A DNA stretch of 38,670 nt from Clostridia bacterium (GTDB taxonomy: Bacteria > Bacillota > Clostridia > Oscillospirales > Acutalibacteraceae), in NCBI GenBank assembly GCA_017431035.1, contig JAFRLW010000021.1, positions 1 to 38,670 on the forward strand, given 5' to 3'. Positions within the stretch are counted from its first letter, which is position 1; the number at the start of each line of letters is the position of its first letter. This document shows positions 2,408 to 31,242 of this stretch, in pieces. The notes under the pieces were generated by a model. It was not told the origin of the DNA, searched no databases, and saw nothing but the letters and a program-made list of their open reading frames with translations. A program made the translations under genes and the position numbers.

Positions 2408-3175
2408 ATGAAAAACTTGAAGAAAATTTTAGCAATTGTTTTGGCGGCTGTTTTTGTATTTGCACTTGCAGCTTGCGGAAGCAAAGAGGAAGCCCAGTCA
2501 CTCACCATTGAAGAGGGTAAGCTCATAATGGCAACAAACGCAACTTTCCCTCCCTATGAGTATTATGACGGTGACGACATAATCGGTATCGATGCCGAGA
2601 TTGCAAAACTTATCGCCGATAAGTTAGGTCTTGAACTTGAAATCGAAGACGTTGAGTTTGATTCTATCATCCCCGGCGTTCAGTCAAACAAGTATGATAT
2701 CGGTATGGCAGGTATGACCGTTACCGACGAGAGAAAAGAAATGGTTAGCTTCTCTGACTCTTATGCAAAGGGCGTTCAGGTTGTTATCGTAAAAGAAGAT
2801 AGCGCTATCGCTTCTATTGATGATCTTGAGGGTAAGAAAATCGGCGTTCAACAGGCTACTACCGGTGACATCTACGCTTCTGATGACTACGGCGAAGAGA
2901 ACGTTACAAAATATGCAAACGGTAACCTCGCTGTTGAAGGCTTGAAGAGCGGTAAGGTTGACTGCGTTATTATTGATAACGAGCCCGCTAAAGCATACGT
3001 TGCAGCAAACGAAGGACTCAAGATTCTTGATACCGCTTATGCTGAAGAAGATTACGCTATTTCTCTAAACAAGTCAAACACCGACCTTCAAAAGAAAGTA
3101 AATGACGCTCTTAAAGAACTCATTGCTGACGGCTCTGTTCAGAAGATAATCGATAAATACATTTCTGCTAAGTAA
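2408..3175 (+). CDS. Amino-acid ABC transporter substrate-binding lipoprotein
   Basis: A 255-residue family 3 periplasmic-binding-type protein. The signal peptide ends in a lipobox LAAC with Cys23 as the lipidation site, so it is anchored to the outer face of the membrane. The mature part begins with a typical ATNATFPPYEY binding-lobe strand, then GIDAEIAKLIADKLG and MTVTDERK, whose Arg normally binds the substrate alpha-carboxylate. It should deliver a polar amino acid or cystine to the downstream permease; the specific substrate cannot be read from the sequence. It has its own sigma-A promoter and GAGGA ribosome binding site. A stem-loop after the gene probably makes it more abundant than the permease, as is common for binding proteins. 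Confidence 0.93.
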   Translation: MKNLKKILAIVLAAVFVFALAACGSKEEAQSLTIEEGKLIMATNATFPPYEYYDGDDIIGIDAEIAKLIADKLGLELEIEDVEFDSIIPGVQSNKYDIGMAGMTVTDERKEMVSFSDSYAKGVQVVIVKEDSAIASIDDLEGKKIGVQQATTGDIYASDDYGEENVTKYANGNLAVEGLKSGKVDCVIIDNEPAKAYVAANEGLKILDTAYAEEDYAISLNKSNTDLQKKVNDALKELIADGSVQKIIDKYISAK

Positions 3176-3191
3176 TTTTACATTAAAAATT

Positions 3192-3212
3192 AGGGCGGTT
3201 TAACACCGCCCT
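3192..3212 (+). terminator. Intercistronic stem-loop between binding protein and permease
   Basis: AGGGCGGT and ACCGCCCT form an 8-bp GC-rich stem around TTAAC, followed by GTTTTGTCTTT. The T tract is imperfect, so it probably acts as a leaky terminator or as an mRNA 3'-end stabiliser, lowering expression of the two downstream genes. Confidence 0.65.
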
Positions 3213-3251
3213 GTTTTGTCTTTACATAAAAGACTAATTTGGAGTTAAAAA

Positions 3252-3995
3252 ATGCAATACATAACTGATTTTTTCAAATCGTTTGCCCACGACTTTGAAA
3301 CCAACTTTATCGTAAAAGATAGATATCTTGCGCTTCTTCGTGGTCTTGCAAACACACTAAAGATAACGCTTGGCGCTCTTATTGTCGGTGTTTTAATAGG
3401 TGTTATAGTTGCGGCGATACGTTCTTCCTATGATAAAAATGCCGAGAGCATAAAGGCTAAAGGTTCCTTTGGCGGTAAAATACTCGCATTTTTGAACGGT
3501 ATTTGCAAAATATATCTCACCGTTATTCGTGGTACGCCGGTTGTCGTTCAACTTATGATTGCCTATTTCGTTATTTTTACATCTGCCAGAGACGGCGTTC
3601 CGATAGGCATTTTCGCCTTTGGTATAAACTCAGGCGCCTACGTTGCCGAGATATTCCGTGGCGGTATAATGTCTATTGATAACGGACAGTTTGAGGCAGG
3701 TAGAAGTCTTGGTTTTAACTATGTTCAAACTATGTGGCATATCGTTATTCCGCAGATGTTCAAAGCGGTGCTTCCGACCCTGCTTAATGAGTTTATAGCG
3801 CTTCTGAAAGAAACCTCGGTTGCAGGTTATGTCGGCGTTACCGATATAACAAAAGCCGGTAACAGTATTGCCGGTGTTACCTATAACTATTTTATGCCGC
3901 TTTTGGCTGTTGCCGCCATATATCTAATTATTGTTATGGTGCTGACATCCCTTGTTGCACGTCTTGAGAGGAGGTTGAGGAAGAGTGACCACTAA
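3252..3995 (+). CDS. Amino-acid ABC transporter permease
   Basis: A 247-residue HisM/GlnP-type inner membrane permease with about five hydrophobic helices. The family hallmarks are [12 protein letters not shown], the [13 protein letters not shown] segment, and the cytoplasmic EAA loop ([12 protein letters not shown]...IVIPQ), which docks onto the ATPase. A charged insert of about 25 residues, rich in K, G and S, sits between the first and second helices. The start ATG has GGAG nine bases upstream. The end overlaps the ATPase gene by 11 bases. It should form a homodimer in a complex with the neighbouring ATPase and binding protein. Confidence 0.93.
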
Positions 3996-4728
3996 TAACG
4001 AAATCGTAATAAAGGTAGAAAACCTCGAGAAATCCTTTGGTGAAATCGAAGTATTAAAAGGTATAACAACCGATATTAAAAAAGGTGAAGTTGTTGTCGT
4101 TATCGGTCCCTCAGGTTCCGGAAAATCAACCTTTTTAAGAACATTAAATCTTCTTGAAATGCCAACGGACGGTACTATCAATTTTGAGGGGACAAACATA
4201 TCAGACCCCAAAATCAATATCAATTTGTATCGTCAAAGAATGGGAATGGTTTTCCAACAGTTTAACCTATTTCCCCATATGACAATACTTAAAAATATGA
4301 CTATTGCTCCTATAAAACTTCAAGGCAAGAGTAAAGCCGATGCGGAAGCGGAAGCGATAGAACTTCTCAAAAAAGTAGGCCTTGCCGATAGGGCAGAAGC
4401 CTACCCCTCTCAACTTTCGGGCGGTCAAAAACAGCGTGTCGCTATTGTCAGAGCCCTTGCTATGAACCCGGAGGTTATGTTGTTTGACGAGCCGACAAGT
4501 GCGCTCGATCCCGAAATGGTAGGCGAGGTACTTTCGGTTATGAAGGAACTTGCCGCCAGCGGTATGACTATGGTAATAGTCACTCACGAAATGGGCTTTG
4601 CCCGTGAGGTTGCCGATAGAGTACTCTTTATTGATGAGGGTATTATTATGGAAGAGGGAACACCTAAAGAGGTTTTTGAAAACCCGAAATGTGATAGACT
4701 AAAAGATTTCCTCAGTAAAGTTTTATAA
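3985..4728 (+). CDS. Amino-acid ABC transporter ATP-binding protein
   Basis: A 247-residue GlnQ/HisP-type ATPase that powers uptake by the adjoining permease. All motifs are intact: Walker A GPSGSGKS (about residues 38-45), a Q-loop in [10 protein letters not shown], signature LSGGQKQR, Walker B VMLFDEP, and the switch His in VIVTHEMG. Translation begins at GTG 3985, inside the end of the permease gene, with GAGG-type SD sequences just upstream; overlap suggests coupling. A 15-bp palindromic terminator follows directly and closes the three-gene operon. Confidence 0.95.
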
Positions 4729-4733
4729 ATATT

Positions 4734-4763
4734 AAAAATGCACTCGATATCGAGTGCATTTTT
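4734..4763. terminator. Bidirectional terminator between glnQ-like and flavodoxin genes
   Basis: A perfect 15-bp inverted repeat centred on GATATC with A and T tracts at both ends. It lies between converging genes (stops at 4728 on + and 4771 on -) and can serve both. Confidence 0.9.
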
Positions 4764-4770
4764 TATGTTT

Positions 4771-5238
4771 TTATGCATTTGCTATTTTGTCTAAATCGCT
4801 GTCGGTATAATTTTTATTTAGCACCGTAGACTCTACTATTACGGCTTTCGGCGCAGAGGGTTTTAACTCCTCTACCGCTTTTCCGAAACCGCTGCCGCCC
4901 GACGTTGCAAAAAGAACTATTTTTTTACCGCTAAAATCTAAACTTTCAAGAAAAGAGTTTATAATAGTCGGCGCTATATACCACCATATAGGAAAACCTA
5001 TATAAACAGTATCATAAGCGGTTATATCTATATCGCCTTTTATAATTTCAGGGTGTATGCGTTTTCTCATCTCAACGCTTGAGCGGGAGAGGGGATTAAG
5101 CCAATTAAGGTCCTTTTTCTCGTATCTCACTGTGGGCTTAATTTCATACAAGTCACATCCTATATGATTTGCCAAATCTTCGGCTAAAGATTTTGTTGTT
5201 CCGCTTGCGGAAAAATATGCTACTAAAGATTTGCTCAT
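4771..5238 (-). CDS. Flavodoxin
   Basis: A 155-residue flavodoxin-like protein carrying FMN as a cytoplasmic electron carrier or quinone/nitro-reductase-like enzyme. The phosphate-binding loop is SASGTTKSL near the N-terminus, and the isoalloxazine-side loop is GFPIWWYIAPTI. It resembles the flavodoxins common as single genes in Clostridia; partner proteins are not identifiable. The start at 5238 (MSKSLVAYF) is chosen because AGGAG lies nine bases upstream; two earlier in-frame ATGs (5244, 5247) are too close to that site. It has its own consensus promoter and shares a terminator with the transporter operon. Confidence 0.88.
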   Translation of the reverse strand: MSKSLVAYFSASGTTKSLAEDLANHIGCDLYEIKPTVRYEKKDLNWLNPLSRSSVEMRKRIHPEIIKGDIDITAYDTVYIGFPIWWYIAPTIINSFLESLDFSGKKIVLFATSGGSGFGKAVEELKPSAPKAVIVESTVLNKNYTDSDLDKIANA

Positions 5239-5259
5239 AAACATCAACTCCTTATATGT

Positions 5260-5288
5260 ATTATAATTGTTGAAATCTTTAATGTCAA
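5260..5288 (-). promoter_or_regulatory. Consensus sigma-A promoter of the flavodoxin gene
   Basis: On the minus strand TTGACA (5283-5288), a 17-base spacer and TATAAT (5260-5265), an exact match to consensus. The leader to the ATG is about 15 bases. Confidence 0.9.
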
Positions 5289-5294
5289 ATAGAT

Positions 5295-5319
5295 AAGGCG
5301 TGGGATTTACCCACGCCTT
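5295..5319 (-). terminator. Terminator of the 1278-residue dockerin gene
   Basis: AAGGCGTGGG and CCCACGCCTT form a 10-bp stem with a five-base loop, seven bases after the stop codon. The following T tract is weak (ATCTATTTG). It sits immediately upstream of the flavodoxin promoter. Confidence 0.75.
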
Positions 5320-5325
5320 GATTAT

Positions 5326-8300
5326 TTATTCTAACGGATACAAATCAGGGAAATACACATAAAAGAGCAGGTAGATAGCATCCTGGTCATTAAGACTTCC
5401 GTCTTTGTTGACGTCTCCCGGTTGATTTATAGGATATAAATCAGAGAAATAAACGTGGAAAAGAAGATAAATTGCGTCCTGGTCATTTACATTACCGTTG
5501 TTATCCATATCGCCTAATATGTAGGTTTGCTTTTCTCTTTCTTTACCGCAAACATTACATATCATATCTTCGTCGCTATCATAGGTGTGCTGCTCCACTA
5601 TTTCATACAGGTAGGTTACATCGTCAATGGTTTTATAGATGTTCTTGACGCCGATACAACCCTCGCCTAAATATTCGGTCGGGTCGTTGACGTACATTCC
5701 TCCATTTACGGTGAGTGCGCCTACCATAGCGTCTTTTTCCGGAAGTAATTGTACCTTTCCTCCGTTTACGGTTACCTTTCCTTTTGCGGCTTTAACCCTT
5801 ATTTCTTTAATAGAACCGTCGTTTATTTCCGCTTCACCGTTGTGGGCATAAAGAATATTTATGCTTCCGCCGTTCATATTCATTTTGCTGCCTGCGGGAA
5901 TTATCTGAACAATACCGCCGAGTTTCGTATCACCCGAAAGGTTAATTACTGATGTCTCGGTACTTGCGGTGACAGAGGCGGTGCCGCCGCTGCCGGTGCC
6001 TTTGCCCGAAACGGTACCACCGTAGAAATTAGCCGTACCCTCGTTGCAGATATTATAACCGTTGCAGTTTCCGCTTGTAGAGTCACCGGTGACAATACCG
6101 TCTTTTACGGTGCCGCCGTACATATTAAAGGTGCACATATCTCTTATATAGATATTGCCGCCAAGGTACGCCGCATTACCGTCTTTTATTGTACCGCCGT
6201 ACATATTCATAGTTCCGCCGCCAAGCGTTGCCGTAGAGTTTAGGGCGATATTTCCTCCACGCTCTTGATAGGAGGCAGAACCTTTAATAACTTTGCCGCC
6301 CGAAATAATACCATTATAAAGGTTAAAGGTACATTTAGGTCCTACGTGTACAAGTCCGCCGCTGAACTGTGGAGCCTCATCTGTATTTCTCTTTACTACT
6401 GCGCCCCAGTTGTTCTTTGAACAGTCGGTGATAAAAAGGGAAGAGGAGATGTCCTTTGTTCCCGTATTTAGACCGAATGCCGCAGTTTTGTTTGTAAAAA
6501 TAGTGTGGCCGTTAAGGCAGATATGAAGTTTAACATTATTTGTATTGAGGTTCATTCTCGCAGTCAGATAGATATCCGCCGTGAGATAGAGATAGTGTTC
6601 GCCCGTTTTTGTGGCGTAAGCTGTAAGTTCCGCCGCCGTGCTTACAGCCGTATAAGTATTGGTCGTGTGCTCGGTATGGTCGCCTATGTCGTTTCCGTCA
6701 ATACAGTCGCAGTGTTCGTGACCGGGTATTGTGTCGCCGAGAGAGGCTTTTGCAAGCCAGGTGCCTACCGTTATAATATCCGAGTACTTGTAGTGAGAGT
6801 TATCGGTACCGCAGGGGACCGTCTCGCCGTCAACTATTCTGTTTAGCATAAAGCCTGCCGTGGGGATTACCGAGTAGTTTTCTATTACCCCTACCTGTGC
6901 TCGTTGCATCTGATTAAAAGCAACGTTCTTTGTAACTGTTGCCTCTTCAGCCGAAGCAAAGGAACTTGAAATCTCATTTGCTATAATAGGTAATGTTTTG
7001 TCTTTTTCATTTCCGGTATGTTCATAAAAACAGTTACGGAACTTAGTCATAAGATTATTGAACTGGGTCGCATACTCTGTGGGATTTCCGTTATCGCTTT
7101 CACCCTGCAACCAGGATAAACTTACAAGATTTATGTTGTCTTTTGTAAAACCTTTGCTTAAAAGGTCTGTATACATACGGTCAAAGGTGCTCATAAAACC
7201 TCTATAGAGGAAACCTGTTGCACGGTTTTCACTGCTGTCAAACTCTAAACCGTTTTCTCCGCAGTACCATGTTCCGTATTTAGGGGTGTTGGATGTCCAA
7301 TGACTCCAGTATTTACTTGAGTTTATTTCTCCGTTTGGTCCTATATCTTTAAGATAACCGAGAATTGACGTGCCGCCTGCCGCATATTTGAAAATTATAG
7401 CCTCGCGGTCGTTCTTTTTGTATTTTTCTTCAAGATATTGCGCCATAGCAAGTTCAGGACCTATATGCGCCGAATCATAACCCATACCCTCAGTAACGGG
7501 GCGGTAGTCCTCTACAAGATTGTTGGGGAAGGAGCCGTCCGGGTTGGAACGGTAGTTGTAGTAATGGATATGGGGATAAATGCCGTCGTCACGCTCTGCT
7601 TCAGAACCGCTTCCAAGCGAGGTAGAGCCCGATGCATTTGACTGTCCTGCAATTATATAAATATCAACCTTTTTGTTTGCCGCCTCATCGGCTGAAAGAG
7701 ATGTAAAATCGGTATATCCGTCAAGAGCAAAACGGTGAGATTTTGTGGTTTCGTTGTATGTGCAGTATACACCGCTCTCCTTTGTTCTGTTAAAGAAAGC
7801 GTTAGCCGCATTTATTTCGCCTTTTGCAAAATCCATAGTAACAGGCATACTGATACCGACTGTATCTTCACCTGCGGTGAGTTCGCCCTCTAAAACAATT
7901 TCTCTACCGGGGTCAAGTTTTATATCGTCACCGATGTTGTCTTTTACAGTTACGTTGCCTTTCATATAAAGAGTGCCGGTGAGCACCGCTATACCGGTAT
8001 AGTTGCCGGTAATAGTTCCGCCGTAAATCTGAATAACGGGAGCGCCTGTGCCAAAACCGACAATACCGCCGGAAATGCCGGATGTATTTTTGCCGCCAGA
8101 AATTGTACCGCTAAGCATCTTGAAAGTACCGTTGTTGTTTATACTTACGTTACCGCCGTTGCTTCCCTCGGCAATACCACCGCTTATTGTGGTGTTTTCT
8201 ATAGTGACTGTAGGCGCATCGGGAGAAGAAGTAGTACCGCTTATTTGAATATTACCGCCGTAGCCGCCCGGTTTGTTGCTTCCGTTTACTATGTTTTCGG

Positions 8301-9162
8301 AATAACCGTTTTCTATAATAGAATCAGTAAAGTTTAATTGTGTCGTACCCGAACAATGTATATTTCCGCCGCTGTTTGCCTTGCCGCCTTTAACAGTAGT
8401 GCCTATAAGGTTAAGAGTAGAAGTATCGGTCACGATAAAGTTTCCGCCGTAGCCTACTTTATCTCTGCCGTTTGCCGTTCCGTCTGATACAGTGCAGTTA
8501 TACATTGTAACATTTGAGGCTTTTCTTAGACTTATATTACCGCCGTAGCAGTTTGCCGTCAGATTTACGGCTTTGCCGCCTGAAATAACGGCTTGATAGA
8601 AACGACCCGTGCCGTTGTTAAAGTAGATGTTTCCGCTTTCACTGGTAGCATAGCCGTCTTTAATTACAGCGCCATATACTTCTAATCTACCATTTGAGGT
8701 AACTGAGATATTACCGCCGTTTTTTCCCTTGCCGCCGGTTATAGAACCTTTTTGCTCGGCACAGTCAGTAATAGTTAAAACTTTTGTGGAAGAGTCAACA
8801 ATAAATACCTGTAGGTTATCTCCGGCTGTTATTGTATTTCCGTTCAGGCAAAGATGTAAATGTTCATTTTTGCCTAAAGTGTAAGATACAGTGGTTGTAA
8901 ATGAGGAAGTGAGATAAAGATATATATCAGTAGCGGTGTCGTAATCTTTGATATATGACAGCAACTCACTTTCATTATCAATAGCCGTCCATTCGGTATT
9001 ATCAGCACAAATATGATTATCATAATTTGTTGCTTTGCCGCCGCATACACAATGTGAAGAATGACCGCCCGCCGCACTTATACTAATCGGCATACAGGGC
9101 AGAAGAAAAACCGTGGCGGTAAATAGAGCCAACATTTTAACAAACAACTTAATTTTTTTCAT
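5326..9162 (-). CDS. Secreted dockerin protein with SGNH/SASA esterase domain between two beta-helix regions
   Basis: A 1278-residue exported protein. Residues 1-31 are a signal peptide. Residues 37-134 form an N-terminal module (HCVC...ELLSYI...LHLCLNG...LTITDC), followed by about 280 residues of GGN-rich repeats typical of a right-handed beta-helix. Residues 497-810 match the SASA/DUF303 acetylesterase family of SGNH hydrolases: GQSN at 506-509 with Ser508, the QGES block near 686, and D787-x-x-H790. Such enzymes remove acetyl groups from sialic acids or plant polysaccharides; the substrate is unknown. A second copy of the N-terminal module (815-914) and a second GGN region (935-1160) follow. 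Residues 1217-1278 are a two-repeat dockerin (GDMDNNGNVND, GDVNKDGSLND), so it should dock to a cohesin. It has its own promoter, separate from the upstream cohesin genes. Confidence 0.85.
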   Translation of the reverse strand: MKKIKLFVKMLALFTATVFLLPCMPISISAAGGHSSHCVCGGKATNYDNHICADNTEWTAIDNESELLSYIKDYDTATDIYLYLTSSFTTTVSYTLGKNEHLHLCLNGNTITAGDNLQVFIVDSSTKVLTITDCAEQKGSITGGKGKNGGNISVTSNGRLEVYGAVIKDGYATSESGNIYFNNGTGRFYQAVISGGKAVNLTANCYGGNISLRKASNVTMYNCTVSDGTANGRDKVGYGGNFIVTDTSTLNLIGTTVKGGKANSGGNIHCSGTTQLNFTDSIIENGYSENIVNGSNKPGGYGGNIQISGTTSSPDAPTVTIENTTISGGIAEGSNGGNVSINNNGTFKMLSGTISGGKNTSGISGGIVGFGTGAPVIQIYGGTITGNYTGIAVLTGTLYMKGNVTVKDNIGDDIKLDPGREIVLEGELTAGEDTVGISMPVTMDFAKGEINAANAFFNRTKESGVYCTYNETTKSHRFALDGYTDFTSLSADEAANKKVDIYIIAGQSNASGSTSLGSGSEAERDDGIYPHIHYYNYRSNPDGSFPNNLVEDYRPVTEGMGYDSAHIGPELAMAQYLEEKYKKNDREAIIFKYAAGGTSILGYLKDIGPNGEINSSKYWSHWTSNTPKYGTWYCGENGLEFDSSENRATGFLYRGFMSTFDRMYTDLLSKGFTKDNINLVSLSWLQGESDNGNPTEYATQFNNLMTKFRNCFYEHTGNEKDKTLPIIANEISSSFASAEEATVTKNVAFNQMQRAQVGVIENYSVIPTAGFMLNRIVDGETVPCGTDNSHYKYSDIITVGTWLAKASLGDTIPGHEHCDCIDGNDIGDHTEHTTNTYTAVSTAAELTAYATKTGEHYLYLTADIYLTARMNLNTNNVKLHICLNGHTIFTNKTAAFGLNTGTKDISSSLFITDCSKNNWGAVVKRNTDEAPQFSGGLVHVGPKCTFNLYNGIISGGKVIKGSASYQERGGNIALNSTATLGGGTMNMYGGTIKDGNAAYLGGNIYIRDMCTFNMYGGTVKDGIVTGDSTSGNCNGYNICNEGTANFYGGTVSGKGTGSGGTASVTASTETSVINLSGDTKLGGIVQIIPAGSKMNMNGGSINILYAHNGEAEINDGSIKEIRVKAAKGKVTVNGGKVQLLPEKDAMVGALTVNGGMYVNDPTEYLGEGCIGVKNIYKTIDDVTYLYEIVEQHTYDSDEDMICNVCGKEREKQTYILGDMDNNGNVNDQDAIYLLFHVYFSDLYPINQPGDVNKDGSLNDQDAIYLLFYVYFPDLYPLE

Positions 9163-11236: not shown

Positions 11237-11932
11237 TTAGTATAAATCAACATTCCAACCGGAAACACTTTGCATAAGACGGGCGTAATCTCTATTGTTG
11301 ACTTTACCGTCGCCATTTGTGTCACGAGCTTCATCAACGTATTCAACATTCCAACCGGAAATACTTTGTATAAGACGGGCACAATCTCTATTGTTGACTT
11401 TACCGTCACCATTTACATCGCCCGGATCATATTGTTTAACTTTTATTGAACAATCTTCAGATATGGGTGTTTTAGTACTTGAAGGTGTTATGGTCGCTTC
11501 GACACTTTGTTCGCCAATATCCTCTTTAGCTCTAACAGTAATTGTGAGCAGGTCACCGTTCAAATCAGAACTAAGAAGTACAGCTGTTTGTTTTTCTACA
11601 TCAAATTGCGTAAATTTGAACTCAAAGGTTGTATCGTCACTTTCATCTTTTAGTGTGGCGTCCTTTTCGGTTATGGGAGGCAAATTCTTGTTGGTTTCGC
11701 CTGAAACTAACTCAAGACCTTCAGAAAGAACCAAATTAATACCAACAGAACTTAAAGACTCTCCTTCCTCAACATTTATATCAGAGATTCCAATGGTAAT
11801 TGTTTGCTCTGTTCCTTTTTTCATTGCTTTTTTTTCAGGCGTAATATTCACCTGAAAAGACAAAGCACTTGCAGGAATCGTAACACTTACAAGCAATACA
11901 ACAGTTACAAGTAATGAAATTATTTTTTTCAT
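11237..11932 (-). CDS. Small cohesin-like plus dockerin protein
   Basis: A 231-residue exported protein. Residues 1-23 are a signal peptide (cleavage near ASA). Residues 25-166 form a beta-sandwich with cohesin-like features: a repeated Thr/Ile strand, SSVGINLVLSEGLELVSG, and LLTITVRAKEDI. Residues 169-231 are a classical dockerin with two calcium loops (DVNGDGKVNNRD and DTNGDGKVNNRD), each followed by an ARL-[IM]-QS helix ending in SGWNV. A protein with one cohesin and one dockerin would act as an adaptor between an anchor and an enzyme; this is inference, and the cohesin match is weaker than the dockerin. It is the first gene after the promoter, 25 bases ahead of the larger cohesin gene. 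Confidence 0.78.
   Translation of the reverse strand: MKKIISLLVTVVLLVSVTIPASALSFQVNITPEKKAMKKGTEQTITIGISDINVEEGESLSSVGINLVLSEGLELVSGETNKNLPPITEKDATLKDESDDTTFEFKFTQFDVEKQTAVLLSSDLNGDLLTITVRAKEDIGEQSVEATITPSSTKTPISEDCSIKVKQYDPGDVNGDGKVNNRDCARLIQSISGWNVEYVDEARDTNGDGKVNNRDYARLMQSVSGWNVDLY
11251..11419 (-). repeat. Near-identical 73-bp direct repeats encoding the two dockerin loops
   Basis: Copies at 11251-11323 and 11347-11419 (period 96 bases, 32 codons) differ at only a few positions, including synonymous sites. Such DNA identity suggests recent duplication or gene conversion within the dockerin. Confidence 0.85.
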
Positions 11933-12234: not shown

Positions 12235-12516
12235 TCAGTTTGGTGTTTTCTCGGTGAGTACCGTAACAATGTTATCTTTCACCTCTAAAAAACCGCCTGA
12301 AAGTTTGTATTCTATTGCTTCATTTTCGGTTTTTATTTTTAGAGTTCCCGGGTCGCTTATCACCGAAATCATATTTGTATGCCCGGGTTTTATGCCGACG
12401 CCGCCGCCGTTTTCACCGTTCTCATTATCTTTTGCCGTAAAAAACACCGACGTACAGTCGCACTCCTTAAACAAACCGCTTGGCAATACTAATCTGAAAT
12501 GAAGTATGTGTTCCAT
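12235..12516 (-). CDS. atpC: F-type ATP synthase epsilon subunit, short form lacking the C-terminal helices
   Basis: A 93-residue protein matching only the N-terminal beta-sandwich of epsilon, which binds gamma and the c-ring. Visible family features are LVLPSGLF, GIKPGHTNMIS and LSGGFLEVKDNIVTVL. Typical bacterial epsilon is about 130-140 residues with two C-terminal helices that can extend and inhibit ATP hydrolysis; here the protein stops right after the sandwich, and the operon terminator begins four bases later, so this is not a frameshift with the rest downstream. The gene starts two bases after atpD. Loss of the inhibitory domain suggests regulation of hydrolysis by other means. Confidence 0.9.
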   Translation of the reverse strand: MEHILHFRLVLPSGLFKECDCTSVFFTAKDNENGENGGGVGIKPGHTNMISVISDPGTLKIKTENEAIEYKLSGGFLEVKDNIVTVLTEKTPN

Positions 12517-12518
12517 AA

Positions 12519-14729
<2,211 letters not shown>

Positions 14730-14730
<1 letters not shown>

Positions 14731-16949
14731 TATTCTCCCTCCTTAAAGCGAGTTAACTCCGTTTTAAGCCTTTCCTTAAACTCATCTGACATACGGTTTC
14801 CCGTCATCAGAGTTGCTTTAATTTCGGGGCAAAACTCATTAAAGTAGACGTATAGGTCCTGTTCAAACTTTTCCATTTCGGAAACATTTATATCATCGGC
14901 AAACCCTTCTAAAACCGCAAAGAGCAAAAGGGCTTGTTGCCAGTCGGGCAGGGGAGCATATCTCTTTTGTCTGAGGGCCGCCATTATCCTGTCGCCGATA
15001 TTCAGAGCGGCTTTGGTTTTATCGTCTAAATCAGAGCCTATTTGGGCAAAGTTAGACAGTTCTCTATACTGGGCAAGGCGCATACGAAGATTGCTTGACA
15101 CCTGTTTAAGCAGTGGCGTTTGCGCCTTTGAGCCGACACGGGAAACAGAAAGTCCTACGTTTACCGCAGGGCGTTGTCCCTCGTTAAAGAGTTCGCTTTC
15201 AAGGAATATTTGTCCGTCGGTTATGGAAATAACGTTTGTAGGTATATATGAAGAAATGTCGCCTGCAAGTGTTTCAATAACCGGCATAGCGGTGACACTT
15301 CCTCCGCCGGCTGCTTCCGAAAGACAAGCGGCACGTTCAAGCAAACGTGAATGCAAATAGAAAACGTCGCCGGGGTATGCCTCTCTGCCGGACGGGCGAT
15401 GAAGCAAAAGGGAAAGTTCCCTGTATGCTACGGCGTGTTTTGAGAGGTCATCATAAATAACCAGACAGTCTTTGCCGCTATACATAAAATACTCGCTCAT
15501 AGCCGCACCTGCAAAAGGCGCTATATATTGCATAGAAGCCGAACTTGAAGCGGTGGCGCAAACTATGGTCGTATAAGAGAGAGCGCCGTTTTCTTCAAGT
15601 TTGTTTTTAAGTTCGGTGACAAAAGACTCTTTTTGACCTATTGCAACATAGATACAATAAACGCCTTTGTCTTTTTGGTTGATAATTGTGTCGGTGATAA
15701 TGGCCGATTTACCTGTTTGTCGGTCACCGATAATCAGTTCTCTTTGACCTCTGCCTATCGGCACTAAAGCGTCAACAACTTTAAGACCCGTATGAAGCGG
15801 AACCGAAACCGATTTTCTACAGGGTATTGAGGGAGCCTCGTTTTCGATAGGTCTTGTCTTGTTTGTGGGCACAACGCCCTTTCCGTCTATCGGGTTGCCT
15901 AACGGGTCAACTATTCTTCCGAGCAGTTCTTCACCTACGGGTACCCTCGCTATTCTGCCTATTCTTCGCACCCTGCTGCCCGTTTCTATGTTCTCGTATT
16001 TACCGAATACAACGCAGCCTATTTTGTCTTTTTCTATATCAAGGATCATTCCTCTTTCGCCGCATTCAAACTCTACAACCTCGCCATAGGTTATATCGGC
16101 AACGCCGTTTATCCAGCAAATACCGTCTGATACACTAAGCACGGTACCTTTTTGGAAAACGTCAATTTGAGGGACGGAAAGTTCTATACCCTCCTCAATA
16201 TCTTTAATAACATCCTCGGCGGTCAGCGCCCCGATAAGCGAGCGGCGTTTGAGGTCACGCTTCAGGTGATACAGGCGGTTAAATACCGTTCCGTCATAAA
16301 TAGAGTCACCTATACGGAGTCTTAGTCCTCCTATCAGTTCGGGACTTATCTGAACACGAAAAGATATTTCGCCCTCGGTTTTATTTATCATTTCTTCGGC
16401 AGCTTTTTGCACCTTTTCTATTATATCGGAAGAAAGGGTATGTGCTGAAGCCAAGGTCACGTATAAAACTTTGTGACTCATAAGATAACACATATCGCCC
16501 GGAGTCAGCGCAATTCTATCAATTAACTTTTGCGCAATGATAGGCTCTCTCTCTCTGATTTTTGAGGCGATAGGCTCCTTTGCCAGATGCTTTTTAAGTC
16601 TTTCACAAAGATTATCCACCGCTTCATCTCTTAAACGAGCCATTTCCTCGTGGGTGATGTTATTTAGTTCTTCATCTTCGGTTTTTGCAAGATTTTTTAT
16701 TTTTTCGTCATAACTTTTGCGCAACAAATCAAGCCCGCCGTCAAACTGCACGGTAGGCTCTTCTTTGGTGTCTATTGGCGTCGCATTTTCCGCTTTTGAT
16801 AACTCTTCTTCGGTTTTATAAGCGTTATCGAGGTCACGATTTATCTTTTCACGGCGCTCTTTGAACTTTTTTACAATAACTTTTCTGCCGACAATAAAAA
16901 CTATTAAGGCAAGAATACAAAAGTTTATAAACGAATATAAAATACGCAT
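14730..16949 (-). CDS. Fused ATP synthase b'-like / delta / alpha subunit
   Basis: One continuous 739-codon frame. Residues 1-22 are a hydrophobic membrane helix, and 23-60 a charged helix, as in a b subunit. Residues 70-150 are a helical linker without clear identity. Residues 150-232 match the delta C-terminal domain: TLASAHTLSSD, then SPELIGGLRLRIGD and the IYDGTVFNRLYHL signature. Residues 236-739 are a complete alpha subunit, including its N-terminal helix (TAEDVIKDIEEGIE), GTVLSVSDGI, Walker A GDRQTGKS (408-415), and the LLLHRPSGREAYPGD region. Mycobacterial b-delta fusions are known; joining alpha too is unusual. The usual six-helix delta N-terminal domain seems missing or much diverged. 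A separate atpF precedes it. It follows atpF by four bases, with AGGTAA as a weak SD. Confidence 0.93.
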
Positions 16950-16953
16950 AATA

Positions 16954-17376
16954 TTACCTGTATGTTACTAACTTTTCGGTAAAAGCGGCAACAAAATCGT
17001 CCATTTTACCGTTGATTATTTCGGCGTTTTCTAAAGAGTGGGATTTTAACTCATTTATTTTAGAGTTTAGCTTGTCCTCGTTCTCTTTTCGCATTTCAGC
17101 AAGTTTTTGCTCTGCGGCGGCTTTTAGTTCCTGTCTTTTCTTTGCCGCTTCATACTTGGCGTTTTCTCTGCTAATTGCGGCTTCTTCCGCCTTTTTGGCT
17201 TTTCTTTCCGCCGCTTCCGTTTCCATGAGATTTGCCTTTTTGTTCCATTTGTCTATTTTCTTTTGTCGCTCGTCCATAACCTTAAGTATAGGACGGAACA
17301 AAAGATTATTTATAACAAGAGCAAAAGCGCAAAAGCAAATCACGGTCCAGATAAGAACCGATGGCTCAATGTTCAT
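16954..17376 (-). CDS. atpF: F-type ATP synthase b subunit
   Basis: A 140-residue peripheral-stalk subunit. An N-terminal membrane helix (about residues 8-28) is followed by FRPILKVMDERQKKI, the typical start of the b coiled coil, then about 100 residues of Ala, Glu and Lys-rich heptads. It should pair with the b-like N-terminus of the downstream fusion protein to form the stator stalk linking subunit a to F1. The ATG at 17376 has GGAGTGAG upstream. It is shorter than many b subunits (about 155-170), which may fit a stalk completed by the delta part of the fusion. Confidence 0.93.
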   Translation of the reverse strand: MNIEPSVLIWTVICFCAFALVINNLLFRPILKVMDERQKKIDKWNKKANLMETEAAERKAKKAEEAAISRENAKYEAAKKRQELKAAAEQKLAEMRKENEDKLNSKINELKSHSLENAEIINGKMDDFVAAFTEKLVTYR

Positions 17377-17393: not shown

Positions 17394-18304
<911 letters not shown>

Positions 18305-18310
18305 ACCGAC

Positions 18311-18622
18311 TCACTCCTTATTTTCAGTATTGTCATTATTATCTTTTTGTCCTTTAAGCAGTAATCTTGTAAAGACAAAAAGTGAAAAGGTCAGTCCTAT
18401 TGCTCCGCCTATCAGCAGTCCGGCGGCGCTTACATTTGTTTTTTCGGCAAAAAAGTAGAGAGCAAACAAATATGCCGCTGCAAGTAACGAACGCAGAGGC
18501 GATATATAAAAGGCGCGCTTGTCCGAAGCGCCTTTAAGCGCCGACTTTAATACTTGATAGTTGATAAAAGATATAACTACTCCGCCTAAAGCGGATATGA
18601 TGACTAAAAAACTATACTTCAA
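18311..18622 (-). CDS. atpI: ATP synthase subunit I-like membrane protein
   Basis: A 103-residue protein with four hydrophobic segments and a charged Asp/Asn/Glu-rich C-terminal tail. It is the first gene of the atp operon, the usual position of AtpI, which is thought to help c-ring assembly or magnesium/calcium supply. Sequence conservation in this family is low, so the call rests on size, topology and position. AGGAGG lies upstream of the ATG, and a promoter candidate is about 30 bases before that. Confidence 0.75.
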   Translation of the reverse strand: MKYSFLVIISALGGVVISFINYQVLKSALKGASDKRAFYISPLRSLLAAAYLFALYFFAEKTNVSAAGLLIGGAIGLTFSLFVFTRLLLKGQKDNNDNTENKE

Positions 18623-22994: not shown

Positions 22995-23780
22995 GTGAAA
23001 ATCATTGTTTGCGTAAAACAGGTTCCCGGCACTTCAAATGTTGAGGTTGACCCGGTAACCGGAGTATTAAAGCGTGACGGACTTTGTGCCAAACTTAATC
23101 CATATGATTTGTTTGCTCTTGAAACCGGCTTTCGCCTAAAGGAAAAGTCAGGTGGGGAGATAACAACAATTTCAATGGGACCGCCTCAGGCTAAAGAGTC
23201 TTTGCTTGAAACTGTATATATGGGTGCCGATAACGGTGTGCTTTTAAGCGACCGTGCTTTTGCCGGCGCCGACGTTCAGGCTACAAGTTACGCCCTTAAA
23301 ACCGGCGTGGAAAAAATAGGAAAATATGATCTTATCATTTGCGGAAAACAAACCACCGACGGCGATACCGCCCAGGTAGGACCGGAACTTGCCGAGCAGC
23401 TCGGTATTGAACACGCCGCAAACGTTATCTCGGTTGATGAAATAGACGGGGAATATATTACAGTCACCGTCAACCTTGACAGTGTTTATCAAACGCAAAA
23501 AATGAAACTTCCGTGCCTTATTACAATAGAAAAAGACGCCTGCACGCCACGTTTGCCCTCTTTCAAGAGAAAGTTTGCTACAAGTCCCGATGCGGTAGTA
23601 GTTTATACTGCAAAAGACCTTGATAACCTCGATGCCGAAAGATGCGGACTTAAAGGCTCACCGACCCAGGTTGAGCGCATTTTCCCGCCTGAAGCCGGCG
23701 GCGACAGAGTTATCTTCAATAGCGGCGATGAACTTTCCGACAAACTTTTTGATATCTTGTCGGAAAAGAAGTTTTTGTGA
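22995..23780 (+). CDS. etfB: Electron-transfer flavoprotein beta subunit (LctB-like)
   Basis: A 261-residue EtfB. It opens with MKIIVCVKQVPGTSNVEVD and has SMGPPQAKESL and the CGKQTTDGDTAQVGPELAEQLG loop, typical of the bifurcating ETF group that binds FAD and NAD. With EtfA and the FAD dehydrogenase downstream it corresponds to the Acetobacterium woodii LctBCD complex, which couples lactate oxidation by NAD+ to oxidation of reduced ferredoxin. The start is GTG at 22995 with GGAGG nine bases upstream. The stop overlaps the region just before etfA. Confidence 0.92.
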   Translation: MKIIVCVKQVPGTSNVEVDPVTGVLKRDGLCAKLNPYDLFALETGFRLKEKSGGEITTISMGPPQAKESLLETVYMGADNGVLLSDRAFAGADVQATSYALKTGVEKIGKYDLIICGKQTTDGDTAQVGPELAEQLGIEHAANVISVDEIDGEYITVTVNLDSVYQTQKMKLPCLITIEKDACTPRLPSFKRKFATSPDAVVVYTAKDLDNLDAERCGLKGSPTQVERIFPPEAGGDRVIFNSGDELSDKLFDILSEKKFL

Positions 23781-23788
23781 GGTGCGGT

Positions 23789-24979
23789 ATGGGACTGATA
23801 ATACATAAAGAAAAAATAAATGAAGAAACAGCAGGAAAACTTATAGATATTTGCCCCTTTTCCGCTATCGGCTATAAAGACGGCGAACTGTCTATCGGTC
23901 AGTCTTGCAAAATGTGTAAACTGTGCGTCAAAAAAGGACCTGAGGGCGCTATAACCTTTGAAGAAGAGGAAAAACCCGTTTGCGACAAATCTTTGTGGCA
24001 AGGCGTTGCCGTTTTTGCCGAGCAAAGAGGCGGCAAAATACACCCCGTTTCTCTTGAACTTGTAGGAAAGGCAAGAGAACTCGCAAAGGTTACGGGTCAT
24101 CCCGTTTTGGTAGTTCTTATAGGTTATAAACTCGAAACGGCGGCAAAGGAACTTCTTGAATATGGCGTAGATAAGGTTTACGTTTATGATGATGAAGCGT
24201 TCAGCGACTTTGTTATCTCTCCTTATGCTAATGCGTTTACCGATTTTATTGAAAAGATAAAGCCCTCAAGCATTCTTGTAGGAGCCACAAGTCTCGGCAG
24301 GTCTATAGCGCCTAAGGTTGCCGCTCGTGTTCACGCCGGACTCACTGCCGACTGCACAATGCTTGAGATGAAAAAGAATACCGACCTTGTTCAAATCCGT
24401 CCTGCATTCGGCGGAAATATTATGGCGCAAATCATTACCCCAAACACAAGGCCGCAGTTTTGCACCGTTCGTTATAAGATTTTCTCCGCTCCTAAAAAAA
24501 GCGAGGCAACAGGCGAGATAATTGATATGCCGGTTGATGAGAATATGATAAAAGGCTATACCACCGTTCTTAAAACGGTCAACAAACCTGAGGAAATAGA
24601 TATTTCCGACGCCGAGATTATCGTAGCAGTAGGCAGAGGTATCAGAACAAAAGATGATTTGGCTCTCGCCGAACAACTTGCCGATACTCTCCACGCTCAA
24701 CTTGCTTGTACAAGACCGCTTGTTGAAAACGGCTGGTTTGATGCAAAACGACAAATCGGGCTTTCCGGCAGAACGGTAAAACCGAAACTTATAATCACTC
24801 TCGGTATTTCCGGCTCGGTACAGTTTGCCGCCGGTATGCGCAACTCGGATTTGATAATCGCAGTGAATAAAGACCGCAAAGCACCTATATTTGAGTTTGC
24901 GAATTATGGATTTGTGGGCGATTTGTATGAGATAGTACCTGCATTACTAAAGAAAGTGGAGGAACTGTACAATGTATAA
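23789..24979 (+). CDS. etfA: Electron-transfer flavoprotein alpha subunit with N-terminal ferredoxin-like domain (LctC-like)
   Basis: A 396-residue EtfA, longer than the common 320-340 because of an N-terminal domain of about 60 residues. That domain has four cysteines (22, 40, 43, 46; CP then C-x2-C-x2-C) suited to one [4Fe-4S] cluster, as reported for LctC of A. woodii. Then come the Etf N domain and the FAD-binding C-terminal domain ([37 protein letters not shown]). It should receive ferredoxin electrons and pass them through FAD to the dehydrogenase complex. ATG 23789 follows GAGGTG by four bases; an in-frame GTG at 23777 has no SD. The 3' end overlaps the next gene by eight bases. Confidence 0.9.
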
Positions 24980-26363
24980 TAAGATAAACAGTGCCGATAT
25001 TTCATATCTCAAAAGCATAATAGATGACGAGAGAGTTCTGTCGGGTGTGCAAATTACCGAAGATTACTCTCACGATGAACTCGGAGATATAAAATCATAT
25101 CCGGATGTTCTTATAAAGGTTAAAAGCGAAGATGAAATCGCCCTTGTTATGAAGTATGCAAATGAGCATAATATTCCGGTTGTTGTTCGTGGCAGCGGAA
25201 CGGGACTTGTAGGCGCCGCAGTTGCCATAAACGGCGGAATAATGCTTGAAACCACTTCTATGAACAGGATACTTGAACTTGATGAGGAAAATCTAACCGT
25301 TACGGTCGAGCCGGGTGTTTTGCTTATGGACCTTGCCGAGTTTGCCGAAAGCCACGATTTTCTTTATCCGCCCGATCCCGGTGAAAAATCGGCGACTATA
25401 GGCGGAAATATAAGCACAAACGCCGGCGGTATGCGTGCCGTTAAATACGGTGTTACAAGAGATTACGTAAGGGGACTTCGTGTTGTTTTGCCAAACGGTG
25501 AGATAGAAGAACTCGGCGGTAAAATAGTTAAAAATAGTACCGGATACAGTCTTCTCAATCTAATGATAGGGTCTGAGGGTACGCTTGGTATTATAACAAA
25601 AGCGATATTAAAACTTATCCCGCTTCCAAAAATCACCGAGAGCCTTTTGGTGCCTTTCCCTTCAGTTACAAAGGGAATAAGAGCCGTGCCGGAAATTATA
25701 AAGAGCAAAGCGTCCCTTACCGCCATTGAGTTTTTTGAAAGGGAAGCGATACTCTTTTCCGAGAGTTATCTCGGCAAAAAGTTTCCCGATACTTCTTCGC
25801 CGGCATATTTGCTTTTGACGGTGGATGGCAACGACCGTGAGGTTGTTGATAATGAATTGACAAGCGTTGCAAAACTCTGTATGGAACTTGGCGCCGCCGA
25901 CGCATTTATCGTTGATACCGATGAGCGCAAAGACTCGGTTTGGAAAGCACGTGGCGCTTTTCTTGAGGCTATTAAAGCCTCTACCACCGAAATGGATGAG
26001 TGCGACGTTGTAGTTCCTCGCAACAAGGTTGCCGAGTTTATCGAGTATACACACGGACTTGCAGAAGAACTCGGTATACGTATTCCGTCCTTTGGTCACG
26101 CAGGTGACGGAAACCTGCACGTGTATGTCTGCCGTGATGAACTCGGTAGTGAAAAATGGCAGGAGTTACTCGCTTTGGCATTTAGTAAAATGTATAAAAA
26201 GGCTGAGGAATTATCCGGTCTTGTTTCTGGTGAACACGGTATAGGTTTTGCAAAGAAACAGTATATGCACGATTTATACGGCGATACTCAAATTGAACTT
26301 ATGCGTGGCATAAAAAAAGTATTTGACCCGAATAATATACTTAATCCCGGAAAACTCTTTTAG
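24972..26363 (+). CDS. FAD-linked lactate dehydrogenase (LctD/GlcD-like)
   Basis: A 463-residue flavoprotein of the vanillyl-alcohol-oxidase/GlcD family. The FAD_binding_4 domain has [11 protein letters not shown] near residues 72-81 and [15 protein letters not shown]; the C-terminal FAD-oxidase domain has GHAGDGNLH near 375 and GEHGIG near 420. Linked to etfBA, and close in size to LctD, it is best read as the (D-)lactate dehydrogenase of a confurcating Ldh-EtfAB complex; glycolate or another 2-hydroxyacid is the main alternative. No lactate permease or racemase lies next to it. GGAGG nine bases before the ATG; a strong terminator follows. Confidence 0.87.
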
Positions 26364-29486: not shown

Positions 29487-31172
29487 TTAATTAGTTTTGT
29501 TTATTATTTTTTGAGATAAAACTTCGGCATCCGTGGAATTAACTACCTTGCTTTTATCTATATCAGCCATAACTTTTTCTATAAAGTCAAGCGAATTTGA
29601 TTTTGAACCGGTGACTATTTTAACACAGTCAGCCATATCTATAACCCCGTCCATATTAACGTCTCCATAGTAAAAGTCGGGGATAAGGTCAATCGCCAAA
29701 TCGGTAAAAACGTCAAACATATCGGCGTCGTATTTATAATAGATATAACCCGAACCGTACCTGTAGTAGTAAAAATCGGTCATTTCGCCCGTTTTCGGGT
29801 GAGTAAAAAACAGTTCGGTGTGTATATTATCAGGGTTTGAATCGTTGTCGTCGTTTGTAACGTCCATATGATAGGCAATACCGTTTCTTATAACTGTGTT
29901 CCACATATGACCGCCACGGTTTCTGTTGTCTTGATACAAATCGCCCATAACTATAAGACAGTCGGTTTTTGTTTCAAACTCGGTATGGTCGCATAGATAT
30001 TTCAGGGCTTTTGCATATCCTTCACAAACGGTGTTGGTAGAGGGGTCGCCGTCAAAGACATAAATCATCTGCCAAGGGTTGCCGTATTTTCCGGGATTAG
30101 TCGCCGACTCGGTATCATAGGTGACAAGATTACAAATAGTATCGTGATAATACTTTATTTTCCCGATATCGTCAAGCCCCATATTACCGGCCTCTTCAAT
30201 AATACCGTTTGCAGTGCTTTCCGCCGCACGCATTTTTGATATAGCTTCAGCCGAAACATTTTGAACATAAATATCATTCGAAATTTCTTCCAATACTTGT
30301 GTCAAGGGATTTTCGGTATCTAAAAACTCATCGCTGACGGCAAAGGTTACGCAGTAGTATATTCCCGTTATATTAGCTGTCGTAAGTCCATATTCAAGGC
30401 TAAAATAAACGATAGAAGACATTCCGCCTGTTTTATTTCCGTATTCGTCCGTATGGGTCGTTTTATCAAACCAGAATAGCTCATTTGCCATTTCGCATAA
30501 CAGTTTTGAAAGGATAAGGCTTGTGTCTGAGCCGCTTCCGCCCTCGTGAGAGGCCATGGCGGCGTCAAGCAGATCAAAACCTATGGCATTCATTTTACTC
30601 CAGTCAATAGCGTTGTATAGGGTTACTTCTAACTCATCTCTAGACAACCCCGCAACATCACGTTCGGTCAGTTCTTTGCCCTCAAGATAATGAGTCTGGA
30701 AAGAGAGAGTTGCCATCTCCTCTTCTGTAAAACCGGATGCAATATTTATAAAATCGGTTACGGCATAAGTACAATTGCCGTTATATACATCCTCTATAAC
30801 CGGCACCGCCGCATTGTATATCATATCGGCAAAGCCGGCAAGCGGTTTATGATACTCGGCGTCGGGCCCTATATCATAACTTGTCTCGCCGGTCGCATTG
30901 TCCGCCATAAGAGGATCAACAGAGGTAACGGTCTTTTTTATGCTTGAAGAAGCGGTGAAAGGTCTTTCTTCGTTCTTATTGACGCTTTTTGCGGCGGCAG
31001 GCGACGGGGTGCATACAACCGTTTGTGTTTCTTTTCTTTCGGGAACGGTTGTTTCCTTCACGTTACTTTTTGTAGAAAAAGAAACGCTGTTTTTAACGGG
31101 TGACAGGCAAAAAAGAACCGTAGTAACTACCGCCATTACAATGCATAATATTCTTTTAGTTGTTTTTTTCAT
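29487..31172 (-). CDS. Exported transglutaminase-like protein with dockerin
   Basis: A 561-residue protein. Residues 1-25 form a signal peptide or anchor, followed by a low-complexity Ser/Thr/Lys linker. A helical region of about 250 residues (about 100-330) has no family I recognise. The transglutaminase-like core has Cys383 in TVCEGYAKAL, His422 in GGHMWNTV and Asp437 in HMDVTND, a complete Cys-His-Asp triad. Residues 503-561 form a dockerin with one clear calcium loop (GDVNMDGVIDMAD) and one less regular (DIDKSKVVNSTD). It could cut or crosslink surface peptides in a cohesin-bound complex; this is inference. The start at 31172 has GAGGTG upstream. Confidence 0.82.
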   Translation of the reverse strand: MKKTTKRILCIVMAVVTTVLFCLSPVKNSVSFSTKSNVKETTVPERKETQTVVCTPSPAAAKSVNKNEERPFTASSSIKKTVTSVDPLMADNATGETSYDIGPDAEYHKPLAGFADMIYNAAVPVIEDVYNGNCTYAVTDFINIASGFTEEEMATLSFQTHYLEGKELTERDVAGLSRDELEVTLYNAIDWSKMNAIGFDLLDAAMASHEGGSGSDTSLILSKLLCEMANELFWFDKTTHTDEYGNKTGGMSSIVYFSLEYGLTTANITGIYYCVTFAVSDEFLDTENPLTQVLEEISNDIYVQNVSAEAISKMRAAESTANGIIEEAGNMGLDDIGKIKYYHDTICNLVTYDTESATNPGKYGNPWQMIYVFDGDPSTNTVCEGYAKALKYLCDHTEFETKTDCLIVMGDLYQDNRNRGGHMWNTVIRNGIAYHMDVTNDDNDSNPDNIHTELFFTHPKTGEMTDFYYYRYGSGYIYYKYDADMFDVFTDLAIDLIPDFYYGDVNMDGVIDMADCVKIVTGSKSNSLDFIEKVMADIDKSKVVNSTDAEVLSQKIINKTN

Positions 31173-31197
31173 ACCTATCACCTCTTTAATAGAAAAT

Positions 31198-31226
31198 ATT
31201 ATACTACAAGAGTTAAATAATATCAA
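31198..31226 (-). promoter_or_regulatory. Promoter of the transglutaminase-dockerin/greA/lysS run
   Basis: On the minus strand TTGATA (31221-31226), 17 bases, TATAAT (31198-31203), about 30 bases from the ATG. Confidence 0.85.
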
Positions 31227-31242
31227 CAAGATTTTTAATTTC

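What the first reader, a model, noticed from the sequence alone, without database searches (positions are those of the whole stretch)
14730..16949. A b'-delta-alpha triple fusion in an F-type ATP synthase
One 739-codon frame joins a b-like membrane helix and stalk (residues 1-60), a delta C-terminal domain (about 150-232) and a full alpha subunit (236-739). A normal atpF precedes it, as in mycobacteria, where atpH is already a b-delta fusion; here the alpha subunit is fused too. Delta's C-terminal signature passes directly into the alpha N-terminal helix with no spacer, SD or start codon, so a simple sequencing indel is unlikely to have joined two genes. The delta N-terminal domain, which normally binds the alpha N-termini, seems missing or reduced. 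The covalent link may replace it.
Basis: partly seen in the sequence, partly recalled or inferred. Interest (0 to 1): 0.85.

Follow-up and report, generated by a model that had tools for sequence, protein, structure and literature searches.

The report
Natural b-delta-alpha ATP synthase fusion protein
A group of uncultured gut bacteria encodes an ATP synthase whose outer holding arm is part of the same protein chain as the alpha subunit, so the enzyme probably has up to three arms instead of one, a design so far shown only in an engineered enzyme.

Summary
The fusion is real. It lies on the minus strand (14730-16949, 739 aa): a b membrane helix and stalk, the delta C-terminal domain and a complete alpha, in an otherwise normal operon (atpI?-B-E-F-fusion-G-D-C). 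It is no artefact: 20 other genomes of the order have it, and 80 of 80 loci kept from a genome scan (247 confirmed candidates; partly the same genomes) carry it in frame. The delta N-terminal domain is absent. No unfused alpha was found in the window's genome or in 17 of the 20 others, so each of the three alpha in an enzyme should bring its own stalk and anchor. Ueno et al. 2025 engineered a deltaN-less delta-alpha fusion and obtained up to three stalks and a subunits with a doubled H+/ATP ratio; a chain of that description (9jc1) is the best PDB match by sequence and fold. They already noted natural two-part fusions. The three-part fusion I did not find in print. Best reading: a natural ATP synthase with several covalently fixed stalks, suited to a low ion-motive force. 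Stalk number is inferred, not shown.

The parts
14730..16949 (-). b-delta(CTD)-alpha fusion ORF, 739 aa, ATG start, includes stop
16884..16940 (-). b transmembrane helix (about residues 4-22)
   Evidence: 19-residue hydropathy maximum of at least 1.93 in windows starting in the first 45 residues, 84 of 84 distinct family members; AF2 helix 2-54; PF00430
16506..16883 (-). b stalk, residues 23-148; 119-143 residues in the family, median 124
   Evidence: AF2 helices 2-54 and 72-123, break 55-71 at low confidence
16245..16505 (-). delta C-terminal domain, residues 149-235; no N-terminal domain before it
   Evidence: PF00213 profile positions 100-172 only; AF2 mixed helix/strand domain, block pLDDT mostly about 90
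16155..16283 (-). junction, residues 223-265: last delta helix and alpha N-terminal helix; no in-frame ATG/GTG/TTG at 225-266
14733..16244 (-). complete alpha subunit, residues 236-739 (GDRQTGKS and SVSRVG motifs)
   Evidence: motif roles recalled
16954..17376 (-). atpF, separate b/b'-type subunit, 140 aa
   Evidence: PF00430 36.4 bits; NCBIfam best PRK08476 B' but below its cut-off
17394..17624 (-). atpE, c subunit, 76 aa
   Evidence: TIGR01260 above cut-off
17645..18304 (-). atpB, a subunit, with LALRLFGN
   Evidence: TIGR01131 above cut-off
18311..18622 (-). probable atpI, by position and conserved synteny only
   Evidence: no NCBIfam match; BLAST relatives in the same place in most loci
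13909..14730 (-). atpG, gamma, 273 aa; overlaps the stop of the fusion by 1 nt
12519..13949 (-). atpD, beta ([15 protein letters not shown]); longest frame, an ATG lies 11 codons in
   Evidence: TIGR01039 778 bits
12235..12516 (-). atpC, short epsilon, 93 aa, beta-sandwich domain only
   Evidence: PF02823 the only Pfam match

Best explanation
The gene encodes a covalent stator arm of a genuine F-type ATP synthase. Shown from sequence: one chain carries a membrane anchor, a stalk helix, the delta C-terminal domain and alpha; the delta N-terminal domain is gone; no unfused alpha was found in the window's genome and in 17 of 20 other fusion genomes. Inferred: since F1 holds three alpha, each enzyme gets three b-delta modules; each pairs with a separate AtpF chain to form a peripheral stalk, and each stalk can hold an a subunit against the c ring. 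The enzyme would then have two or three stalks and a subunits and a higher ion/ATP ratio (in the engineered enzyme, proportional to the number of a subunits). It could make ATP at a low ion-motive force, or move more ions per ATP when run backwards. Having b in the chain would prevent the loss of stalks suspected in the engineered enzyme.
For: In frame in 80 of 80 loci kept and in 20 other genomes, one of them cut by its contig end; alpha of 21 triple fusions lies on one side of a branch with support 100/100. Own genome: one alpha, the fused one. Of 20 other fusion genomes, 17 show no unfused alpha (11 of these at least 90% complete), and 11 show no second F or A/V ATPase gene above the cut-off (6 at least 90% complete). 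Junction 219-266 is 48 residues in 80 of 84 distinct sequences, as steady as the folded parts (delta 71 in 83, alpha 434 in 79), while stalk segment 44-149 takes 19 lengths: the link behaves like a fixed structural element. Best PDB match by sequence is 9jc1_I, a delta-alpha fusion, junction aligned with a single one-residue gap; three chains of 9jc1 are Foldseek ranks 1-3. The engineered fusion gave up to three stalks and a subunits by cryo-EM and H+/ATP 5.8 against 3.0 (PMC12229609). The b helix keeps its transmembrane segment in 84 of 84. Crude dN/dS over 28 pairs is below 1 in sum in every part: b 0.22, linker 0.41, delta 0.13, junction 0.34, alpha 0.11.
Against: No protein of this family has been seen; stalk number, a-subunit number and ion/ATP ratio are carried over from an engineered homologue. 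In that enzyme the average was about two stalks, and triple-stalk particles were very few. Trimming of some N-termini cannot be excluded. Single pairs reach dN/dS above 1 in linker (1.90) and junction (1.25). Rnf, a plausible source of a small ion gradient, passes its cut-off in 19 of 21 fusion genomes but also in 55 of 60 relatives, 6 of them fusion genomes, so it does not mark the fusion. The AF2 model is of one chain only, pTM 0.58, with poor stretches in alpha; Foldseek rmsd to 9jc1_I is 13.5 A and TM-scores are 0.49/0.64. All fusion genomes seen are drafts, so a missed free alpha is possible.
Confidence: 0.65

Rival explanations
1. Single-stalk enzyme after trimming: the chain is made fused, a protease removes the b-delta part from two of three alpha, and only one full-length chain anchors F1. 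The fusion then only guarantees the link of stalk and F1.
For: Fits the usual 3 alpha: 1 delta ratio; the junction is less conserved than its neighbours (dN/dS 0.34; no invariant residue between 219 and 266 in 20 sequences).
Against: Junction length is nearly constant (48 in 80 of 84), against a disposable linker; with the delta N-terminal domain absent, the element said to break the threefold symmetry is missing (PMC12229609). I made no search for protease sites beyond looking at the alignment.
Confidence: 0.2
2. Untrimmed fusion but only one stalk completed: two of the three b helices stay idle without AtpF and a partners.
For: One atpB and one atpF gene in the operon, so partners may be limiting; in the engineered enzyme triple-stalk particles were very few.
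Against: Each anchor is tied to an alpha and sits where the engineered enzyme bound b dimers and a subunits.
Confidence: 0.1
3. Free alpha is also made by internal translation initiation at the junction.
For: A Shine-Dalgarno-like GAGGAGG at codons 252-254 of the window gene; SD-like stretches precede 24 of 142 start-like codons in the junctions against 138 of 1863 in the alpha body.
Against: No in-frame ATG/GTG/TTG in the window junction, none in 17 of 84 sequences, no position shared by more than 19 of 84; the excess of SD-like stretches may come from runs of Glu codons (not tested). Rarer start codons were not examined.
Confidence: 0.04
4. Assembly or frameshift artefact, or decaying gene.
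For: The sources are metagenome-assembled or draft genomes.
Against: Open frame in 80 of 80 kept loci and 20 other genomes, at 28-62% identity to the window over the N-terminal 262 residues in the 19 aligned; dN/dS below 1 in sum.
Confidence: 0.01

Closest known systems
Engineered delta(deltaN)-alpha fused FoF1 of Bacillus PS3 (Ueno et al. 2025, PMC12229609); PDB 9jc1, which I take for its entry from title and molecule name
   Same: Delta N-terminal domain removed, delta C-terminal domain fused to the alpha N-terminus, almost the same junction length; epsilon without C-terminal domain in both
   Different: There b is a separate dimer that can dissociate; here one b helix is part of the chain and the partner AtpF is another gene. 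Engineered against natural.
   Same: Delta C-terminal domain fused to alpha, N-terminal domain missing
   Different: No b part; the 12 of 15 put on the alpha tree fall in several places and none inside the triple-fusion clade
Mycobacterial b-delta fusion (PDB 7jg5_d)
   Same: b helix and stalk fused to delta, a second b gene upstream (PMC5709465, passages)
   Different: There the chain is 445 aa with the delta C-terminal match at 391-441 and alpha is separate; here the delta N-terminal domain is absent and alpha is fused
Eukaryotic V-ATPase with three peripheral stalks
   Same: Would work like it, if the inference holds: one stalk on each of three non-catalytic subunits (recalled)
   Different: Family: this alpha and operon are F-type

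Membership tests
F-type ATP synthase | alpha, beta, gamma, epsilon, a, b, c genes of F type in one operon | tested here: met
   TIGR00962, TIGR01039, TIGR01131, TIGR01260 above cut-off; gamma, epsilon and AtpF above Pfam cut-offs
F-type ATP synthase | catalytic and ion-path motifs (beta GGAGxGKT and GERxREG, alpha SVSRVG, a LALRLFGN, acidic residue in c) | tested here: met
   SVSRVG in 84 of 84; alpha GDRQ[TS]GK[ST] in 79 of 84 (the other 5 not examined). Motif roles recalled
F-type ATP synthase | one delta and one peripheral stalk per three alpha | not testable with these tools
   gene content predicts 3 delta C-terminal domains per 3 alpha; needs the protein
delta(deltaN)-alpha multi-stalk design | delta N-terminal domain absent, C-terminal domain fused to alpha | tested here: met
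delta(deltaN)-alpha multi-stalk design | junction of a length compatible with delta sitting on its own alpha | tested here: met
   one-residue gap against 9jc1_I; length 48 in 80 of 84
delta(deltaN)-alpha multi-stalk design | up to three stalks and a subunits | not testable with these tools
   needs purified enzyme
Mycobacterial b-delta protein | b fused to a delta with its N-terminal domain, alpha separate | tested here: not met
   alpha is fused and no delta N-terminal domain is found
N-ATPase (alternate F1F0) | alternate F1F0 models (TIGR03324, TIGR03305) above their cut-offs | tested here: not met
   576.8 against 750.5 and 582.2 against 752; gene order also differs from that given in passages of PMC5709465

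The most novel reading that the evidence does not exclude
A natural ATP synthase that normally carries three covalently anchored peripheral stalks and up to three proton-conducting a subunits, with an ion/ATP ratio two to three times that set by its c ring, and that is the only rotary ATPase of some gut Clostridia.
Probability: 0.5. Interest if true: 0.92.

Novelty: new variant of a known kind. Interest (0 to 1): 0.78.

Why it matters
Textbook F-type ATP synthases have one stator arm and one a subunit. The 2025 engineering study argued that this limit is set by the delta N-terminal domain and suggested that nature may have broken it. A case in which b, delta and alpha are one conserved chain is a stronger natural candidate than the two-part fusions, because the arm cannot fall off the alpha and, in most genomes seen, no unfused alpha was found. 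It makes two open questions testable: whether ion/ATP ratios in nature go beyond what the c ring allows, and how anaerobes with a weak ion gradient make ATP. Two-part delta-alpha fusions scattered over the alpha tree suggest that such changes happened more than once.

Tried and rejected
Sequencing artefact: rejected. A separate alpha elsewhere in the window's genome: searched with PF00006; besides the fusion and beta there are two frames of 463 and 595 aa side by side on contig 1, taken for A/V-type B and A by length and weak similarity (no family scan), and two weak unidentified matches below the cut-off. Rnf as a mark of fusion genomes: rejected after the control. Membrane pyrophosphatase: 13 of 21 fusion genomes, no control run. 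Two weak order-level matches with long frames (G132, G143) were fetched and show no alpha (L179, L180). Long read-through frames in G765, G438 and G1063 are separate delta and alpha; in G576 alpha stands alone and its delta was not recognised, yet I counted it as 'separate' in the tree. Fold search gave 9jc1 and alpha chains; nothing on assembly. A second AF2 job (residues 1-262 as a single sequence) was unfinished and is not used; sending it without an alignment was a poor choice. One chosen row (L100) fell out of the tree because the trimming motif was not found. Six contig-cut fusion frames (five and G178) were left out of the 95 frames. The full-text searches listed more papers than I opened: only PMC5709465 and PMC12229609 were opened.

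Full report
WHAT IS THERE. On the minus strand of the window, 14730-16949 is one 739-codon frame. Pfam finds, in order, ATP synthase B/B' (residues 3-55, 27.9 bits, 0.1 below its cut-off), the delta/OSCP family at 159-233 but only profile positions 100-172, and the three alpha domains to residue 734. NCBIfam calls it atpA at 703.5 bits over residues 243-737. It sits in an operon with a, c, a separate 140-aa b-type AtpF, gamma, beta and a short epsilon. In the window's genome (95% complete) the delta family matches only here, and the alpha/beta family matches here, in beta, in two adjacent frames that I take for A/V-type subunits, and weakly in two unidentified frames.

IT IS FIXED, NOT AN ERROR. 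Among 60 genomes (own included) 7 match the N-terminal 240 residues: the window, five more fusions (frames 735-781 aa) and one genome with a separate delta. Among 394 genomes of the order 50 match; 17 besides the window are fusions with E below 1e-30, frames 736-784 aa, one of 521 cut by its contig; the other 32 are weak matches (best E 5e-7), mostly in frames of the size of separate delta or b proteins. Two genomes are in both sets, so there are 20 fusion genomes besides the window. In all 20 the fusion follows atpF, and gamma and beta follow it in 19 (one contig ends inside the fusion); atpI or atpC was not recognised by BLAST in some. A scan of the collection of 84,980 species' genomes gave 309 pattern matches, 247 of them confirmed relatives, of which the best 80 were kept; some are the same genomes as above. 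All 80 carry one frame that matches both the b-delta part and alpha; 5 are cut by the contig end. AtpF is seen upstream in 78 of 80; in the other two only 50 and 402 nt of contig lie before the fusion. Record titles name uncultured Clostridia, Oscillospiraceae, Christensenellaceae and others; many name goat, sheep, buffalo, deer, horse or rabbit gut samples. No fusion with a b part appears among the best matches in samples of 391 genomes of the class and 398 of the phylum, apart from the window (long match lists were cut at the weak end).

ANATOMY. From 95 fusion frames I kept 84 distinct ones, window included. The N-terminus holds a transmembrane-grade helix in 84 of 84. The stalk between helix and delta is 119-143 residues, median 124. 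The delta domain is 71 residues between fixed landmarks in 83 of 84. The junction from the last delta aspartate (219) to the first alpha glutamine (266) is 48 residues in 80 of 84, while segment 44-149 occurs in 19 lengths. AF2 on 55 sequences (mean pLDDT 78.9, pTM 0.58) gives helices 2-54 and 72-123, then three short helices, the delta domain to 221, a helix 222-235, a short turn, the alpha N-terminal helix 244-257 and the alpha barrel. I see no helical bundle of the size of a delta N-terminal domain between stalk and delta domain. Profile comparison of the N-terminal part with AtpF gives 96.7% probability. Crude dN/dS (ratio of sums, 28 pairs) is b 0.22, linker 0.41, delta 0.13, junction 0.34, alpha 0.11; single pairs exceed 1 in linker and junction.

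THE STOICHIOMETRY PUZZLE. F1 has three alpha and normally one delta and two b. A fused chain gives three of each unless free alpha is also made. The window gene has no ATG, GTG or TTG in frame at residues 225-266; a GAGGAGG at codons 252-254 has no such start after it. In 84 sequences 17 have no start-like codon there, and no position is shared by more than 19 of the 84. In one search (20 fusion genomes and G020), 17 of the 20 show no unfused alpha, 11 of them at least 90% complete. Eleven of the 20 show only the fused alpha and beta, or fragments of them, above the cut-off; six of these are at least 90% complete (G029, G055, G386, G095, G299, G125). Six more have a pair of frames of A/V-type length, as the window's genome has. 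Three (G127, G411, G417) have a second F-type operon, with separate delta and alpha in G127 and G411 and a two-part fusion in G417.

WHAT IT WORKS LIKE. Ueno et al. 2025 (PMC12229609; I read the abstract, passages and the whole Discussion) removed the delta N-terminal domain of Bacillus PS3 FoF1 and fused the rest to alpha. They obtained up to three stalks and three a subunits by cryo-EM, about two on average by SDS-PAGE, and an H+/ATP ratio of 5.8 against 3.0. They argue that the delta N-terminal domain limits the enzyme to one stalk. They also name Acidaminococcus fermentans and two UniProt entries as natural delta-alpha fusions that await verification. The best PDB sequence match of the window protein is chain 9jc1_I, described as a delta-alpha fusion (E 3e-183); its junction aligns with one one-residue gap; three 9jc1 chains head the Foldseek list (rmsd 13.5 A). 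That 9jc1 is the entry of this paper I infer from its title. So the two decisive features of the multi-stalk design are present in nature here, and b is part of the chain too. Whether three stalks are really built is not shown.

A WIDER PATTERN. Looking at other long alpha frames I fetched two-part fusions: delta C-terminal domain with alpha, 578-619 aa, in 15 genomes. The delta part is confirmed by Pfam in the 4 scanned and rests on weak BLAST matches in three (L185, L189, L190; best E 0.007 to 0.022). Nearly full delta with alpha, 679-690 aa, occurs in G660, G620, G694, G445 and G563 (Pfam in the 2 scanned). In an alpha tree of 45 rows the 21 triple fusions form one side of a branch (100/100), while the 12 two-part fusions included need at least 4 changes on well-supported branches. 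So two-part fusions have come or gone repeatedly, and the triple fusion looks like one event in this sample.

BIOENERGETIC SETTING. RnfC passes its cut-off in 19 of 21 fusion genomes, but also in 55 of 60 relatives, of which 6 are fusion genomes, so 49 of 54 without the fusion. Membrane pyrophosphatase is found in 13 of 21 (no control). An enzyme with a high ion/ATP ratio would suit organisms with a weak ion gradient, but nothing here ties the fusion to such a trait.

LITERATURE. Searches on delta/alpha fusion, b-delta fusion, Christensenellales, mycobacterial stalks, missing delta, three or multiple peripheral stalks, multi-stalk and Acidaminococcus listed no title or abstract start that reports a b-delta-alpha fusion; I opened two of the listed papers. 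The library holds open-licence PubMed Central papers only. PMC5709465 (passages only) reports the b-delta fusion in Gordonia and some Mycobacterium and a Clostridia unit without delta, which may be unrecognised delta-alpha fusions; its supplement was not read.

VERDICT. The finding is confirmed and somewhat larger than stated: a conserved stator arm in one chain with alpha in an F-type ATP synthase of many uncultured Clostridia. It is a new variant of a known kind. My confidence in the multi-stalk reading is about two in three.

Noticed in passing
   Followed up: partly
L169, L170, L171, L187, L192: Nearly full delta fused to alpha (679-690 aa), delta N-terminal domain kept; by the engineering argument only one such domain fits on the axis although three are made.
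   Followed up: partly
L184:2108-3670 (G020:C33): F-type operon without a recognised delta gene; alpha has a short N-terminal extension that looks like the last helix of the delta domain, possibly a relic of a fusion.
   Followed up: no
L193 (G485:C13), 55-918 and 3062-5719: A 287-aa delta with a long N-terminal extension, and an 885-aa frame with beta in its C-terminal half that overlaps the gamma frame.
   Followed up: no
window 12235-12516: Epsilon is only 93 aa, without the C-terminal helical domain; the five family members looked at, window included, are 84-93 aa.
   Followed up: partly
window 5326-9162, 11237-11932, 29487-31229: Three proteins with dockerin-like repeats of the type GDVNxDGxxxxxD (motif recalled, no family search made).
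   Followed up: no
window 22995-26363: EtfB-EtfA-FAD-linked oxidase cluster of the kind seen in electron-bifurcating lactate dehydrogenases (recalled, not searched).
   Followed up: no
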